From contig JAJTUP010000022.1 in assembly GCA_021399435.1 (NCBI GenBank), positions 186,001-250,000 on the forward strand: a stretch of DNA of 64,000 nt, in the 5' to 3' direction. The DNA comes from Diaporthe sp. PMI_573. Taxonomy: Eukaryota > Ascomycota > Sordariomycetes > Diaporthales > Diaporthaceae. Shown one piece after another: positions 10,987 through 52,613 of the stretch; the stretch's first letter is position 1, and every line of letters begins with the position of its first letter. The translations under genes and the position numbers were made by a program. The notes under the pieces are model-generated. The model ran no database searches. It saw only the letters and a program-made list of their open reading frames with translations, and was not told the origin of the DNA.

Positions 10987-11113
10987 AGCCCGACGTGGGG
11001 GTCGAACCCACAACCTTGAGATATATCTCTGTCAGAATCGTGAGGACCTCATGATGATCCTCATCATCATCTGTACTAAGAGTCTCACGCTCTACCGATT
11101 GAGCTAGCCGGGC
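10987..11113 (-). tRNA. tRNA-Lys(CTT) with canonical 54-nt intron
   Basis: Reading the minus strand from 11113: acceptor strand GCCCGGC, TA, D stem GCTC/GAGC with A box TAGCTCAATCGG, anticodon stem TGAGA/TCTCA with loop CTCTTAA (anticodon CTT), T arm GTGGG-TTCGACC-CCCAC, and acceptor 3' strand GTCGGGC with discriminator T at 10987. One G-T wobble is in the acceptor stem. A 54-nt intron (11023-11076) interrupts the gene directly after position 37, the normal site cut by the tRNA splicing endonuclease. Removing it leaves a 73-nt tRNA with all stems paired. The intron itself is rich in ATG/CAT repeats that can fold back on themselves. Cytosolic Lys-AAG decoding tRNA; the gene looks intact. Confidence 0.93.
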
Positions 11114-17925: not shown

Positions 17926-17931
17926 AAAAAA
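17926..17931 (-). terminator. Pol III T6 terminator of the initiator tRNA gene
   Basis: On the minus strand a T6 run starts 11 bases after the 3' end of the tRNA, with another T6 run at 17913-17918. This is the expected distance and strength for RNA polymerase III termination and argues that the interrupted tRNA gene is still a Pol III unit. Confidence 0.7.
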
Positions 17932-17941
17932 CAACTTGTTG

Positions 17942-18065
17942 TAGCTACAACTGGTTTCGATCCAGCGACCTCCGGGTTATGAGCCCGGCGCCTGTTATTG
18001 TTAGTGTGTGTCAGAATTTGGCAATTGGAACAAGTCAACTCACTCTTCCCCTGAGCTATGTAGCT
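17942..18065 (-). tRNA. initiator tRNA-Met(CAT) split by a GT-AG intron
   Basis: Exon 1 is 18044-18065 (22 nt), the insert is 17992-18043 (52 nt), and exon 2 is 17942-17991 (50 nt). Joined, they give 72 nt with acceptor AGCTACA/TGTAGCT plus discriminator A, D stem GCTC/GAGC, anticodon stem CCGGG/CCCGG with loop CTCATAA, and T arm GCTGG-ATCGAAA-CCAGT. The A1:T72 pair, the GGG/CCC pairs next to the anticodon loop, the T loop ATCGAAA in place of TTCRA, and the short D loop are the hallmarks of a eukaryotic initiator tRNA. A box TAGCTCAGGGG, B box GGATCGAAACC and a downstream T6 run are intact. The insert is not at 37/38 but inside the 3' strand of the D stem. It starts GTGAGT, has ACTAAC (branch A at 18001) and ends AACAG, so it has the form of a fungal spliceosomal intron. 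Without its removal the D stem cannot form. Alternatives are a non-functional copy or an intron acquired when the locus was transcribed by Pol II. Confidence 0.85.
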
Positions 18066-21301: not shown

Positions 21302-24300
21302 ATGAGCGGCCTCGAAATGGGTTTCGACGGCCAAGCGAGCCAGGACAAAGCAGATGTCAGCTCCGGCGCACAGCGGCTACCGGCGACTGGGCCCTTCGTG
21401 CTGCGCACGCTGCTCGAGGACGTGCCACTCTCCGAGGACGGGGACAACGACGATGTCAAGATCAACTTCGTCGAGTATCTTGGTAAGACCAGCCTGGTAA
21501 CTCCGGCTTAGCAATTGGCCCATTCTGACTTCTACTTGCCAGGCGGAAACCTCTACATAGGCACCTCTGCCTCGGAACTCCTACACTTCGTCCAGATCCC
21601 GCCCGATCCCGCCGACAGAGCCAGCCAGCCAGTCTTCATCCTCGCCTCAAGGTTGCGCCCGACATATATCGAGAGTTCGGTTGCCGGAAACGCAAAGCCC
21701 GGGGTGCAGCAGATTCTCCTGCTGCCCAGAGTCCAGAAGGCATGCGTGTTGTGCAACAATACCGTCACATTCTACTCCCTCCCAGAGCTCAGCCCCGTCT
21801 TTGGGACCGTACGGGTCAAGAACTGCTATTGGATTGGAGGCCTGGATCTAAACATCTCAGAGAACGATAATAATGGCCATGATGACGGGCGTCCCGTCGG
21901 GGAGACCATCTTGTTGTCACTTGCCCGCAAGATACAGGTCGTTCGGGTTGGTGAGGATGCCAGAGTGTTCAAGGTGAGACATCACGGCGCAATGGGGGCG
22001 AAACGAGGCCTGCGTGTGTGCTGACATGGGCGAAGCAAATCGATTTCGCCGGCAGCACGATTTCAGTCCGGAGAGATTCGATAGCATGCGTAGCCGACTC
22101 GAGGAACTACGCTCTCTTGGATGTAACCCGCCAGCTGAAGATACCCCTTATGGCCATTTCTTCCCTCGACGATTCGCAGCCGAATATGGGCCAGGCTCAG
22201 AACATTGCTGGGAATTCCGACGTCGGGATCTTGCGCAGCGCGTCTTCGGCACAAAATAGACCTTCAAGCTCAGGCACCAACGACGGTCACGGCCATAGTC
22301 GGAGTACAAGTCTAGGAAATTTCATGTCCCAGGCCATCAAAAGGCAGAATAACAGCGAAGGCTATGACTCCGATCATCAGCAAGGATCCGACACTCCGCA
22401 GCGATCAGGCAGCCCTGCGCAACAATCCACTCAAGGCCCAGTCTCGACAGATAAATCTTTGCCCAGCCCTCCCAGTGGAATGGCCCAAGCTTCAAAGCCT
22501 CCTGCTGCCGCTCCGGTGATTTTGAAGGCACATATAGCATCACCCACCTCTGAAGAATTTCTTCTTGTGACCGGCACTGGTCCTCATGATCCTGGCATAG
22601 GCATCTTTGTGAACCTCGACGGTGACCCCACAAGACCTACTCTGGAATTTGACAGATATCCCAAGGAGATAGTTGTCGATGGAGGAGTCGCGGACTTGTC
22701 ATCCTCAAGGCCGTCCATGGGTGAAGAAGAGGAGGGTTACGTTCTTGCTTCGATGGGCAAGGAATTTCAGGACGGTCTCCACAATGGCCTTGAAATACAG
22801 CGCTGGGATTTGAATGTTGGTGAGGAAGTGCCTACCAAGCACTGGCTCGAGGCTCCTTCAACCGAAGAATCTCCAAATGATGCCAAGACACCTTCACTTG
22901 GTATCAAGTCACTCATGGGGACAGAGGAATCCAATCTTCAAGAAATTGTGGACAAGCTTTGCCAAAAGAAGTTTTCTCCGTTCTCTGGAAGTCAGCTGGA
23001 ATCATCGGCAATGTCACTCAAAAGCTTGGATTCTCGGACAGCTCTTTCAATGGAGAGAGTTTCTAAAGAAAGGGAACTCTTCGAAAGGGACGACGACGAA
23101 TCCCCATTGCCTGATGGCTGGGAAGCTATGAGGAACGAAGAAGAGCAGGATTTCGCCAAGCGATTTGCCACGACCACCTCCCGCCTCGCAGTCTGGTCCG
23201 GGAATCACATATGGTGGGCGGTCAGGAACCCACTACTTCTGCAACTTGATGCGAAGATTGAGTGTTCAGCCATGGAGGCACACGAAGCACCTCACACGGC
23301 AGAGGAACGCCGTCAGTTGTTCTCCATCCTGGCAACAATCAGAGGAAGAGATGCAAGAACCGAGCTCGAGTTCATGACATTCAGTTATATCAAGCAGAGG
23401 GCAAGCGTGCTTTTATTTACGAGCTTCCTTCACTCAAAGGAGACACCTTTCCCGCCCGAGCTTAAGGCCATGGAAGAAGTACTCCTCGATTCGAGCTTAG
23501 ACCCGAGAGTCGTTCTCGGTCTGATCCCAGGCTTACGAAATGAAATAATCGAGACCAGGAAGGGGATTTGGATATTTGGGGGCGTCAAAGCAGCAGTTGA
23601 GAGGTACATGGCCTCTGAGAAGTTCAATCAAGAAGGGCAGACTATCGACAGTCTGGGGCAAACAACCCTCCTATTTGTCAAATCATACCTTTGGGGCGTC
23701 CGTCGCAAGAAAGGCATGGCAAGCACAGCAAACGCGAGCGAGGTGTTCAGAACCGTGGATGCTGCCCTGTTGGTGGCTCTGCTGGAGCTTGACAAAGACT
23801 CGCCAAAGGGCATGGGCAGGAGTGGTAGCATTCGATCCGAGGTGTACGAGCTAGTGGACAAAGGTGTTGATTGTTTTGACCGAGCCGTGGACCTACTCGA
23901 ACATTACAACCGTCTCTTCGTCCTGAGCCGTCTCTATCAAAGCCGCAAGATGTCGGCCGACGTCCTGGCGACGTGGAGGCGCATCATTGAAGGCGAGCAA
24001 GACAATGGCGGCGAGTTCCGCGATGGTGAGATGCGCGTGCGCGAGTATCTTTCCAAAGTCAGCAGCCAGCCTCTCGTGCAAGAATTCGGCATATGGCTCG
24101 CAAATCGCAATCCGAAGCTTGGTGTGCAAGTCTTCGCAGATGACAAGGGCCGCGCTCCGAAATTTGAGCCAGCGCACGTCGTCGGCATCCTGCGTGAGCA
24201 AGCGCCCGATGCCGTGAAATATTACCTAGAGCATCTGGTGTTTGGGAAGGGGCACACCAAGTACGTGAATGAGCTCATCACATACTACCTCGACATCGTC

Positions 24301-49685: not shown

Positions 49686-52613
49686 ATGCGCTTGGCCATG
49701 TACGCCGGGGTATGTTGGCGCCCCAGCTCCAGCTCCAGCTCCAGCTCCCCTCCTCCGAGCACATCCCACCCCCTTCACCCGACTTGCACTGCTGCCGATC
49801 CATCCTTATGGCCCAGCATCTATGGGAGCTACCCAGTCGTTGCAGCTGTGCTGATGATCGCGAGATCGGCCCGGAGCTGACATGAGTGTTTTCTATAGGC
49901 CTCGGCGGCCCTCGCGGCCGCGGTTGTCACGTCCGCATTCTACCAGCGCGCCAACTTCTACTCCGCCATGGTCTATCTGTCGCAGAGCAACCTCTGCTTG
50001 ATGGTGAGTCCCGGCCCAACCCCCCCAACCCCCAATTCCGTCGCATCCCACACGTCGACATTGAGGCACGCGACCATCGGTGACAGAGCGGGCCGACACT
50101 GATGATCGTCACCCTCCCACAGATCCTCGTCAACCTCGTCTTCCTCATCTACGGCTCCTTCATGTACGGACTCCAGCGCCTCTGCTTCGGGACCCTCCGC
50201 CCCGTCGAGGTCGAGCAGCTCTACGAGAAGGCCTGGTTCGCTATCACCGAGACCTGCCTCGCCATGACCGTCTTCCGCGAGGAGGTCGGCGCCTTCTTCA
50301 TCGTCATGTTCACCGCCCTCATCACGGGCAAGGTCTGGGGCTGGATCGGCGAGGGCCGTGTCGAGGTCTTTGAGCAGCAACCGCCTGCGAACCCCCGCCT
50401 CTTCCACGCCCGCCTCGTCGTGTCGCTGCTCTCGAGCATCATATACAACTCCTGGCTGCTGAGCTACTGCATCAACACGGTCATCGCGCAGGCGAAGCCC
50501 ACCATGATGGTCATGTTCTTGTTCGAATTTGCGGTCCTTGCGGTTGGGTCCCTCCACACGGGCCTGCGATATGTTATCTCGCTGGTTGAGGCGAGTGTTG
50601 TCAAGAGGCAGACCGCACAGAGGTTGGCGCAACGAAGGCGCGAGGTCAGAGAACAGAGAGCGGAGAGCCTGCGGAGAAGGGCGGCCGGCGAGGAAACCGA
50701 AGATGCCGAGCCACTACCGGACGAGGAGGACATCGATGAGATGGATATTGAAGTCCCCGGCTGGGATACGAAGGGCCAGTGGATCTTGTTCCTGGACCTC
50801 TTCGCTGGTGAGTCTGAGTGGAGTTGATCGATATGGGAACGCCCCTAACAAAATAACAGATCTGCTCAAGCTCTCAGTTTACACCGCATTCTTCTGTGTC
50901 TTGCTCGTCTTCTACGGTCTACCCATTCATATTATGAGGGACCTCTTCATGACCACAAGAAGCTTCGTCAAGCGGCTGACAGCCCTGCTCAGATATAAGC
51001 AGGCACTGAGGGACATGGAACGATACCCAGACGCCACGGCGGAAGACCTGGGCCGCGAGGATACTTGCATTATCTGCCGAGAGGAGATGCGGCCTTGGGA
51101 CCCGAACGCCGGACAGGTGGAGAGAACCAGACCGAAGAAATTGCCATGTGGCCATATTTTGCACTTTGGCTGTCTCAAGAGCTGGTTAGAGAGGCAGCAA
51201 GTTTGCCCGACCTGTCGCAGCTCTGTCGTCGTTGACCAACCACCGAGAAATGGCCAATACCGGCCCAGAATGGCGTTCCATATACAACCAAACCTACCTG
51301 GCGGGCAGAATCAGCCCGCACCACCGAATGGTCAGGCACCCGGTGGGCAGGATGCACAGCTTAACGGGCAGGCCGGACAGGGCGGTCAACAACAACCTGC
51401 AGGCCCTAGGGCCGCCATGCGATACATCAACCTCGGCCCGATAAGATTAGGGTTTGCCCAGGGCGGGCAGGAGGTGGCAGAGCTGGCGAACCGAATGGGC
51501 GTCGATCTTCATGGGCCTAATGCCCCAGCGGCAGCACAGGCCCATATTCCCGCAACAAGTCCTGCAGATCTCTCGACAATGGAAGCTGTTCGTAATAGGT
51601 TGCTGGAGGTCGATCAGAGGATCCAGCAGGAAGTTCGTGAGATACAGCAAGGCATACAGAACGTCCACACTGCCCAGCACGAACTCCAGCTGATCAACAT
51701 GATGCTTGCCGAGCTCACACGCATCCGGCAGCAGAACCTTGGCCAGCAACACCCCACAGCCCAGCCTGGCCAGCCGACACCTACTCCTAATGGGACGGCT
51801 CCGGCTCCGGCTCCGGCTGCTGGTGTACCTCCCCAACAAGCGGGTGCTGCGCCAATACCACCACCGGTTATATATCCCGCCGGCCAAATGCCCCTCCCGA
51901 CAATGCCCCAGGCGTCAAACACTTTCATTCCTAGGATGAGCTCACCCACTGTCACACGCCACGGGGCTATTCCACAGCAGGCAGCGATTCCCTCTGGCAG
52001 CGCAGACCTTCCCGAGGGTGTTGTGATCCCGCCGGGATGGTCCCTCATGCCTCTTCAGCGACTCGACGCGGGTGCGGTCCCGGCAAATCTGCCTCAAGCG
52101 CACGGCGGTGCCACACCAGGTCACGCGCCAGAGGGGCCTCAGCAGACTGGTAATGGCCAGCCTAACGGAGCGATTCCACCCCAGTCGTCGAGCAGTACTG
52201 GCGGAGCGGCCTCGGGCCTTAACGGAGGCACCACATCTGAGGACGTCCACGGCACAGCCGCTCAACAAGCTCCTCGTCAGTCGACAGCTGAGCCACCCCA
52301 GGTGGCAGCCCCAACACCGGTGACACCTGTCTGGGGCGGGCCGGCGCAGCTCTTTGGCGGCGACAGAAGCGGCGGCGCTTCGTTGCCATTTGGCCTAGAA
52401 CAAGCTGGCTCCAGCCCGTCCGCCTCCCAGACCCGCGAAGCGGAGAACAGCAGCACCACTCAGGAAGGTGGTGACCACGGTGGTGCGAGCGGGCCTGGCG
52501 AGCCGAGCGCGTCAGCTCCTCCTCCACCAGCGGCTGAGGAGCACGGGGACGCCTCTTCGACCGCTGCTAAGGGCAAGGCGCCTGCTACTACGGTCGAAGA
52601 CGAGGAGGATTGA
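49686..52613 (+). CDS. HRD1: ERAD E3 ubiquitin ligase Hrd1 (synoviolin)
   Basis: Four exons: 49686-49709 (only 8 codons), 49899-50003, 50123-50807 and 50860-52613. The frame is intact and gives 855 residues. The N terminus ([33 protein letters not shown] then [38 protein letters not shown]) is typical of Hrd1 membrane segments. Several more hydrophobic spans follow up to about residue 297. The RING-H2 domain spans residues 341-390, with C341, C344, C368, H370, H373, C376, C387 and C390. The remaining 460 residues are a Gln/Pro/Ala/Gly-rich disordered tail with one helical segment ([21 protein letters not shown]). Family knowledge: it sits in the ER membrane and ubiquitinates misfolded ER proteins during retrotranslocation. 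The first intron carries an AGCTCC repeat. The gene is convergent with a UCHL5-type deubiquitinase. The long tail exceeds the yeast protein but is common in filamentous fungi. Confidence 0.94.

What the first reader, a model, noticed from the sequence alone, without database searches (positions are those of the whole stretch)
17942..18065. Initiator tRNA-Met gene interrupted in the D stem by what looks like a spliceosomal intron
Seen directly: removing 17992-18043 (52 nt, minus strand) restores a 72-nt tRNA with every stem paired and all initiator hallmarks (A1:T72, GGG/CCC anticodon stem, ATCGAAA T loop). The removed piece begins GTGAGT, has ACTAAC with the branch A nine bases from the end, and ends CAG. 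This is the same form as the mRNA introns in this window. Established: nuclear eukaryotic tRNA introns sit after position 37 and are cut by the tRNA splicing endonuclease, as in the tRNA-Lys gene 7 kb away. The endonuclease should not be able to recognise a site inside the D stem. U6 snRNA of fission yeast is a precedent for a spliceosomal intron in a Pol III transcript. Inference: either the spliceosome processes a Pol III tRNA precursor here, making initiator tRNA supply depend on mRNA splicing, or the copy is silent. Intact A and B boxes and a T6 terminator favour a live gene. I know of no described family of such genes.
Basis: partly seen in the sequence, partly recalled or inferred. Interest (0 to 1): 0.92.

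Follow-up and report, generated by a model that had tools for sequence, protein, structure and literature searches.

The report
Spliceosomal-type intron in initiator tRNA genes
In this fungus two of the three genes found for the tRNA that starts protein synthesis carry an insert that looks like an ordinary mRNA intron, so the mRNA-splicing machinery probably has to help make a tRNA.

Summary
In this fungal genome (nearest named relative a Diaporthe) my pattern searches found three initiator tRNA genes, on three contigs. The window copy (17942-18065, minus) and one on C24 are interrupted at the same place in the D stem by 52 and 53 bases; the third (C152) is uninterrupted. Removing either insert gives exactly the 72 bases of the intact copy, so the ends are fixed by homology. 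They fall on GTGAGT...ACTAAC...CAG, the form of mRNA introns nearby. The inserts differ by four substitutions and two indels; the exons do not differ. A box, B box and T run are intact in all three. The same genome holds a canonical U6 gene (U6 is a Pol III RNA) split by two introns of this type. No RNA data were available, so splicing is inferred. The intact copy means dependence of translation on splicing is possible, not shown. I saw no report of a spliceosomal intron in a tRNA gene in the (capped) listings of ten searches of an open paper library; one review supposes D-arm insertions in eukaryotic tRNA genes to be pseudogenes. Best reading: spliceosome-processed initiator tRNA genes, about 0.75.

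The parts
18044..18065 (-). Exon 1 of the initiator tRNA-Met gene: acceptor 5' strand, A box, D loop and the first half of the D stem 3' strand
   Evidence: Identical to bases 1-22 of the uninterrupted C152 copy; this 22-mer is found at 4 places in the genome with up to 3 mismatches allowed, all exact: three genes and one relic
17992..18043 (-). 52-base insert with the form of a U2-type spliceosomal intron
   Evidence: Borders fixed by comparison with the intact copy; homologous 53-base insert at the same site in C24
18038..18043 (-). 5' splice site-like GTGAGT
   Evidence: unchanged in the C24 copy
18000..18005 (-). Branch-site-like ACTAAC; nine bases follow the branch A to the end of the insert
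   Evidence: unchanged in the C24 copy
17992..17994 (-). 3' splice site-like CAG
   Evidence: unchanged in the C24 copy
17942..17991 (-). Exon 2: rest of the D stem, anticodon arm with CAT at 17979-17981, T arm, acceptor 3' strand
   Evidence: Identical to bases 23-72 of the C152 copy
18048..18058 (-). A box TAGCTCAGGGG, upstream of the insert and intact
17953..17963 (-). B box GGATCGAAACC; A to B start distance 95 bases (96 in C24, 43 in C152)
17926..17931 (-). T6, Pol III terminator-like, 10 bases after the tRNA

Best explanation
Two of the three initiator tRNA-Met genes found in this Diaporthe-like fungus contain an ordinary U2-type spliceosomal intron inside the D stem. The gene is transcribed by Pol III from its intact A and B boxes and stops at the T run. 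U1/U6 recognise GTGAGT and U2 recognises ACTAAC; the lariat leaves, and the joined RNA is the same 72-base initiator tRNA that the uninterrupted third gene makes. Unspliced precursor cannot make the mature D arm and would be expected to be degraded. Shown: the gene structure, identical exons, the motif set, two diverged copies, and introns of the same type in a U6 gene of the same genome. Inferred: Pol III transcription, spliceosomal removal, use of the product in translation.
For: Insert ends fixed by an intact copy and falling on GTGAGT/CAG with ACTAAC between; about 9e-6 for a loose version of that set by chance. Second copy on another contig with the same site and an insert that differs by 4 substitutions and 2 indels, with 72 of 72 exon bases the same; if the 6 events were spread evenly over 125 columns, all falling in the insert has probability 0.005, or 0.028 for the 4 substitutions alone. 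Promoter boxes and T run intact in all three. mRNA introns of the window have the same form; the one in the Hrd1 (synoviolin) gene at 50808-50859 is also 52 bases, GTGAGT...CTAACAAAATAACAG. A canonical U6 copy (L025, C138) carries two such introns of 52 and 64 bases; joining its exons gives a 99-base U6 that fits the Rfam consensus by eye. None of 21 inserts that ARAGORN reports in other tRNA genes of this genome has the GTR...CTRAY...AG form.
Against: No RNA evidence of any kind. One uninterrupted copy could supply all initiator tRNA. Identical exons could be kept by gene conversion from the intact copy. By reading, exon GA plus the first two insert bases GT can pair with GCTC (one G-T pair), so a D arm could form in the precursor and bury the 5' splice site; the minimum-energy fold also pairs GAGT, in a different hairpin. 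Among 8 genome-wide places with CTAAC, YAG and a B box at tRNA-like spacing, only the two initiator genes are tRNA genes with such an insert, and the backward control pattern gave more matches, 22, so this is not seen as a general habit of tRNA genes here. The SRP, RNase P and U3 matches show no such intron. A divergent, intronless U6 copy (L023) scores highest of five U6 matches, so the interrupted U6 may not be the only one in use.
Confidence: 0.75

Rival explanations
1. The two interrupted copies are silent: an mRNA-type intron landed in a tRNA gene, the gene was copied once, and only the C152 gene makes initiator tRNA.
For: A review states that insertions in the D or T arm of eukaryotic tRNA genes are mostly found in one of many synonymous genes and are supposed to be pseudogenes (PMC4090602, passages). 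An intact copy exists. A 24-base 5' relic lies 3.6 kb from the C24 gene, so initiator fragments do get scattered.
Against: Two of three copies, exons unchanged while the insert drifted, splice signals kept, promoters and T runs intact.
Confidence: 0.12
2. The interrupted copies are spliced as part of longer Pol II transcripts, and the tRNA is cut out afterwards by RNase P and tRNase Z.
For: The window gene lies 458 bases downstream of, and in the same direction as, a 652-codon ORF; the C24 gene lies downstream of same-strand ORFs of unknown standing. Pol II transcripts are the usual substrate of the spliceosome.
Against: T runs 10 bases after both genes and intact internal promoters.
Confidence: 0.08
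3. The insert is removed by the tRNA splicing endonuclease and ligase, as non-canonical introns are in the red alga Cyanidioschyzon and probably in nucleomorphs.
For: Introns in D arms are known in those lineages (PMC4090602, passages; PMC9602550, abstract start).
Against: The ends and the branch motif are spliceosomal. No bulge-helix-bulge was seen at the junctions, but the same check failed on two canonical introns used as controls, so it carries no weight.
Confidence: 0.04
4. Assembly or sequencing artefact.
For: No raw reads were available.
Against: The insert is found on two contigs of 1.0 and 1.4 Mb with unrelated flanks and with different sequence.
Confidence: 0.01

Closest known systems
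Spliceosomal (mRNA-type) introns in fungal U6 snRNA genes, as in Schizosaccharomyces
   Same: Short mRNA-type intron in a small Pol III RNA; also present in this genome (L025)
   Different: U6 is a spliceosome part and its intron is thought to come from reverse splicing near its catalytic bases (PMC10484740, passage); a tRNA is not part of the spliceosome. In L025 the introns hold the B-box-like GTTCGATTCC; in the tRNA genes the B box is in the exon
Spliceosomal introns in lichen rDNA
   Same: Spliceosomal introns in a structural RNA not made by Pol II; absent from the mature rRNA, and yeast removed one from Pol I transcripts (PMC8527467, passages)
   Different: Pol I, long pre-rRNA, different gene class
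Spliceosomal introns in fungal U3 snoRNA genes
   Same: mRNA-type intron in a small structured RNA (PMC5832005, passages)
   Different: Different RNA class; the one U3 match in this genome looks uninterrupted
Canonical nuclear tRNA introns (position 37/38)
   Same: Insert in a nuclear tRNA gene; the window's other tRNA gene (10987-11113; tRNA-Lys) has one
   Different: Site in the anticodon loop, cut by the Sen endonuclease; none of 21 inserts reported in other tRNA genes here has the GTR...CTRAY...AG form
Non-canonical D-arm introns of Cyanidioschyzon and nucleomorph tRNA genes
   Same: D-arm position in eukaryotic tRNA genes (PMC4090602, passages)
   Different: Attributed in that review to the tRNA splicing endonuclease in Cyanidioschyzon, with the mode unknown in the nucleomorph; the word spliceosome does not occur in its main text

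Membership tests
U2-type spliceosomal intron | GT...AG ends at the true exon borders | tested here: met
   Borders fixed by the intact copy; one of the two possible registers is GTGAGT...CAG in both copies
U2-type spliceosomal intron | Branch-site motif at fitting distance | tested here: met
   ACTAAC with 9 bases after the branch A in the window copy; same motif in C24
U2-type spliceosomal intron | Removed by the spliceosome through a lariat | not testable with these tools
   No RNA data held
Functional initiator tRNA-Met gene | Mature sequence with CAT anticodon, A1:T72, GGG/CCC anticodon stem, intact promoter boxes and terminator (hallmarks recalled) | tested here: met
   72 of 72 bases equal to the C152 copy; boxes and T run
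Functional initiator tRNA-Met gene | Transcribed and aminoacylated product | not testable with these tools
   No RNA data held
Canonical nuclear tRNA intron | Located one base 3' of the anticodon | tested here: not met
   Insert after base 22 of 72, in the D stem
Bulge-helix-bulge (archaeal-type) tRNA intron | Bulge-helix-bulge across the two junctions | tested here: inconclusive
   Central helix at most 2 of 4 pairs, but two canonical introns used as controls also failed
tRNA pseudogene | Decayed exons, promoter or terminator | tested here: not met
   No change in 72 bases in either copy; A and B boxes and T runs intact. A silent gene without decay is not excluded
Introner or other mobile intron family | Many similar copies in the genome | tested here: not met
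   A 211-base query with the insert found only the three initiator loci at E up to 10, the insert itself at two (the tool scores only its best candidates, 3 here)

The most novel reading that the evidence does not exclude
The spliceosome matures a tRNA: two of three initiator tRNA genes of a filamentous ascomycete are Pol III genes with a U2-type intron in the D stem. The pool of initiator tRNA, and so the capacity to start translation, is then partly under the control of pre-mRNA splicing, and the tRNA endonuclease is not the only route for nuclear tRNA introns.
Probability: 0.7. Interest if true: 0.92.

Novelty: new variant of a known kind. Interest (0 to 1): 0.84.

Why it matters
Nuclear tRNA introns are understood as the business of a dedicated endonuclease, nearly always at one site. 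A spliceosomal intron in a tRNA gene would show that the spliceosome can act on short, highly folded Pol III transcripts other than its own U6, would link translation start to splicing capacity, and would mean that annotation programs miss or miscall such genes, as ARAGORN does here. It also gives a simple test system for whether splicing needs Pol II.

Tried and rejected
Bulge-helix-bulge check at the junctions: rejected as evidence because both canonical controls failed too. Search for the insert as a repeated element: only the two initiator loci. Flank comparison for a segmental duplication: of six flank pairs, two show a weak resemblance (C24 and C152 downstream, 12 of 200 shuffles reach it, and BLAST runs on into it; C152 and C133 upstream, 8 of 200), the other four do not; beyond TCCAAC before the gene, C24 and C133 share no alignable flank. 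Neither the copying route nor the direction of gain or loss could be settled. Search for relatives outside this genome: none in viral contigs, genome contigs or plasmids, which are collections of viruses, prokaryotes and plasmids and can leave out records near the window's genome. The screen for other tRNA genes of this type is incomplete: only CTAAC-type branch sites with a GGNTCGANNCC T arm were covered (8 places, against 22 for the pattern read backwards; two are the initiator genes; the six others, read by eye, are one ordinary mRNA intron, one degraded tRNA-like stretch and four without a visible tRNA). Of 54 tRNA matches (63 of 2509 candidates scored) 47 were read and ARAGORN called a tRNA in 44; seven were not fetched. 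To my knowledge ARAGORN looks for introns only in the anticodon region, so it could not have shown a D-arm insert; some of its inserts (for example L034, L046) look mis-split. The four places with two mismatches have no exon 1 or T arm near them. One protein search with the Hrd1 ORF gave mostly unnamed metagenome proteins and served for a gene name and one intron.

Full report
What is there. On the minus strand at 18065-17942 lies a 124-base gene. Taking out 18043-17992 leaves 72 bases that are identical to an uninterrupted initiator tRNA gene on contig C152 of the same genome (Rfam tRNA 65.5 bits). The insert sits after base 22, inside the 3' strand of the D stem. Because the intact copy fixes the borders, there are only two possible registers, and one reads GTGAGT...CAG. 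ACTAAC lies so that nine bases follow the branch A. With the ends fixed, a loose motif set (GTRAG, CTRAY, YAG, two registers) has a chance probability near 9e-6.

Copies in the genome. The window is part of an 83.7 Mb, 217-contig assembly. A protein of the window (Vps3-like) is 92% identical to one of Diaporthe australafricana and 95% to unnamed proteins, so I take the source to be a Diaporthe or close kin (inference). The anticodon-arm pattern with up to two mismatches was found at 7 places (7 also for the pattern read backwards). The 3 exact ones are the initiator genes on C24, C133 (the window) and C152; the 4 others have two mismatches and no exon 1 or T arm nearby. Exon 1 with up to three mismatches was found at 4 places, all exact, against none for the backward control: the three genes, and a 24-base relic without a second half 3.6 kb from the C24 gene. 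C24 has a 53-base insert at the same site. The two inserts differ by 4 substitutions and 2 indels, none in the three splice motifs, while the 72 exon bases do not differ. If the six events were spread evenly over insert and exons, all six in the insert has probability 0.005; for the four substitutions alone 0.028. That no event hits the motifs is weak evidence, as there are few events. Gene conversion from the intact copy is another way to keep exons identical.

Signs of a live gene. A box, B box and a T run 10 bases after the gene are intact in all three copies. The insert lies after the A box and stretches the A-to-B start distance from 43 to 95 or 96 bases. In the predicted fold of the unspliced RNA the acceptor, anticodon and T stems form and the mature D arm does not. 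Two cautions: the energy model does not fold the intact 72-base RNA into a cloverleaf either, so these folds are only a guide; and by reading, exon GA plus the first two insert bases could complete a D stem with one G-T pair, which would bury the 5' splice site.

The same form as mRNA introns. Introns placed with the help of protein alignment in the window are GTAAGA...CTGAC...CAG (Vps3-like gene, 21483-21542), GTGAGA...CTGAC...AAG (same gene, 21974-22035) and GTGAGT...CTAACAAAATAACAG (Hrd1, 50808-50859, also 52 bases). Two more, at 63925-63845 and 63750-63687 in a permease-like gene (name recalled), were read by frame alone. My small intron script listed only the first of these in the stretches it scanned; the others were read by eye.

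A precedent in the same genome. U6, a Pol III RNA, was searched because fission yeast U6 has an mRNA-type intron that is spliced (PMC10484740, passages). Five matches were found (47 of 4699 candidates scored). L025 on C138 is a canonical U6 split by two introns: GTGAGT...GCTAACGTCAATCCAG (52 bases) and GTACGC...GCTAACTTCACTACAG (64 bases). Joining its exons gives a 99-base U6 that fits the Rfam consensus by eye (it was not scored), and each intron contains the B-box-like GTTCGATTCC. L026 and L024 carry single introns of the same type but no first exon that I could recognise; L027 is truncated; L023 is intronless and divergent, yet scores highest. So spliceosomal-type introns in Pol III genes are part of this genome, though L023 leaves open whether U6 splicing is obligatory. 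The SRP, RNase P and U3 families each gave one match over the whole model (26 of 576, 14 of 5155 and 24 of 1082 candidates scored). None holds a GTRNG followed by CTRAC on the searched strands; the RNase P match has 346 bases for 301 model positions. The habit is therefore not general among small RNA genes here.

How wide it is among tRNA genes. In 47 of the 54 tRNA matches, ARAGORN reports 21 inserts, in the anticodon region, and none has the GTR...CTRAY...AG form. A genome-wide pattern for CTAAC, YAG and a B box at tRNA spacing gave 8 places (22 for the backward control); only the two initiator genes are tRNA genes with such an insert. Other branch motifs were not screened.

Mechanism. I hold that Pol III makes an interrupted precursor, the spliceosome removes the insert, and the product joins the pool from C152. 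Steps shown: structure, homology-fixed ends, two diverged copies, same-genome U6 introns. Steps inferred: transcription, splicing, use. The strongest rival is that both interrupted copies are silent. A review holds that D- and T-arm insertions in eukaryotic tRNA genes are mostly in one of many synonymous genes and supposed pseudogenes (PMC4090602, passages); here two of three copies share the insert and neither has decayed. Pol II read-through is a lesser rival, since the window gene follows a same-strand ORF by 458 bases.

Literature. Ten searches of the open library gave no paper on a spliceosomal intron in a tRNA gene in the listings that I saw. Those listings were capped (for example 25 of 107 papers, 20 of 69, 10 of 170), most subscription papers are not held, and the main survey of U6 introns in fungi is not held. 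A 2017 paper says that U3 and U6 are so far the only small structured RNAs known to be often interrupted by an intron (PMC5832005, passages). Spliceosomal introns in lichen rDNA are described, and yeast removed one from Pol I transcripts (PMC8527467, passages). The kind, a spliceosomal intron in an RNA not made by Pol II, is therefore known; a tRNA as host appears new as far as these searches go.

Noticed in passing
L025:1383-1600 (G000:C138, near 750735-750832): Canonical U6 gene split by two spliceosomal-type introns (52 and 64 bases), each with a B-box-like GTTCGATTCC inside; the middle exon is only 9 bases (AGAGAAGAT).
   Followed up: partly
L024 near 1533 and L026 (reverse strand) near 1441: U6 copies that begin near AGAGAAGAT without a first exon that I could recognise, with single introns at different places; by eye their upstream sequences resemble each other, as in a repeat.
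   Followed up: no
L023:1501-1599 (minus), G000:C35:1172277-1172375: Intronless, divergent U6 copy; it scores higher in Rfam (54.2 bits) than the unspliced canonical copy (44.4).
   Followed up: no
L020:8442-8465 (minus), G000:C24:637942-637963: 24-base 5' fragment of the initiator tRNA in the uninterrupted form (ends GAGC), 3.6 kb from the interrupted C24 gene, with no second half.
   Followed up: partly
window 17942-18065: With introns allowed, ARAGORN reports this gene as tRNA-Val(AAC) with a 31-base intron, so automatic annotation could mislabel it.
   Followed up: yes
L026 intron, window insert, L020 insert: The U6 intron of L026 and both tRNA inserts begin GTGAGTTGA; whether this is common descent or the shared consensus was not tested.
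   Followed up: no
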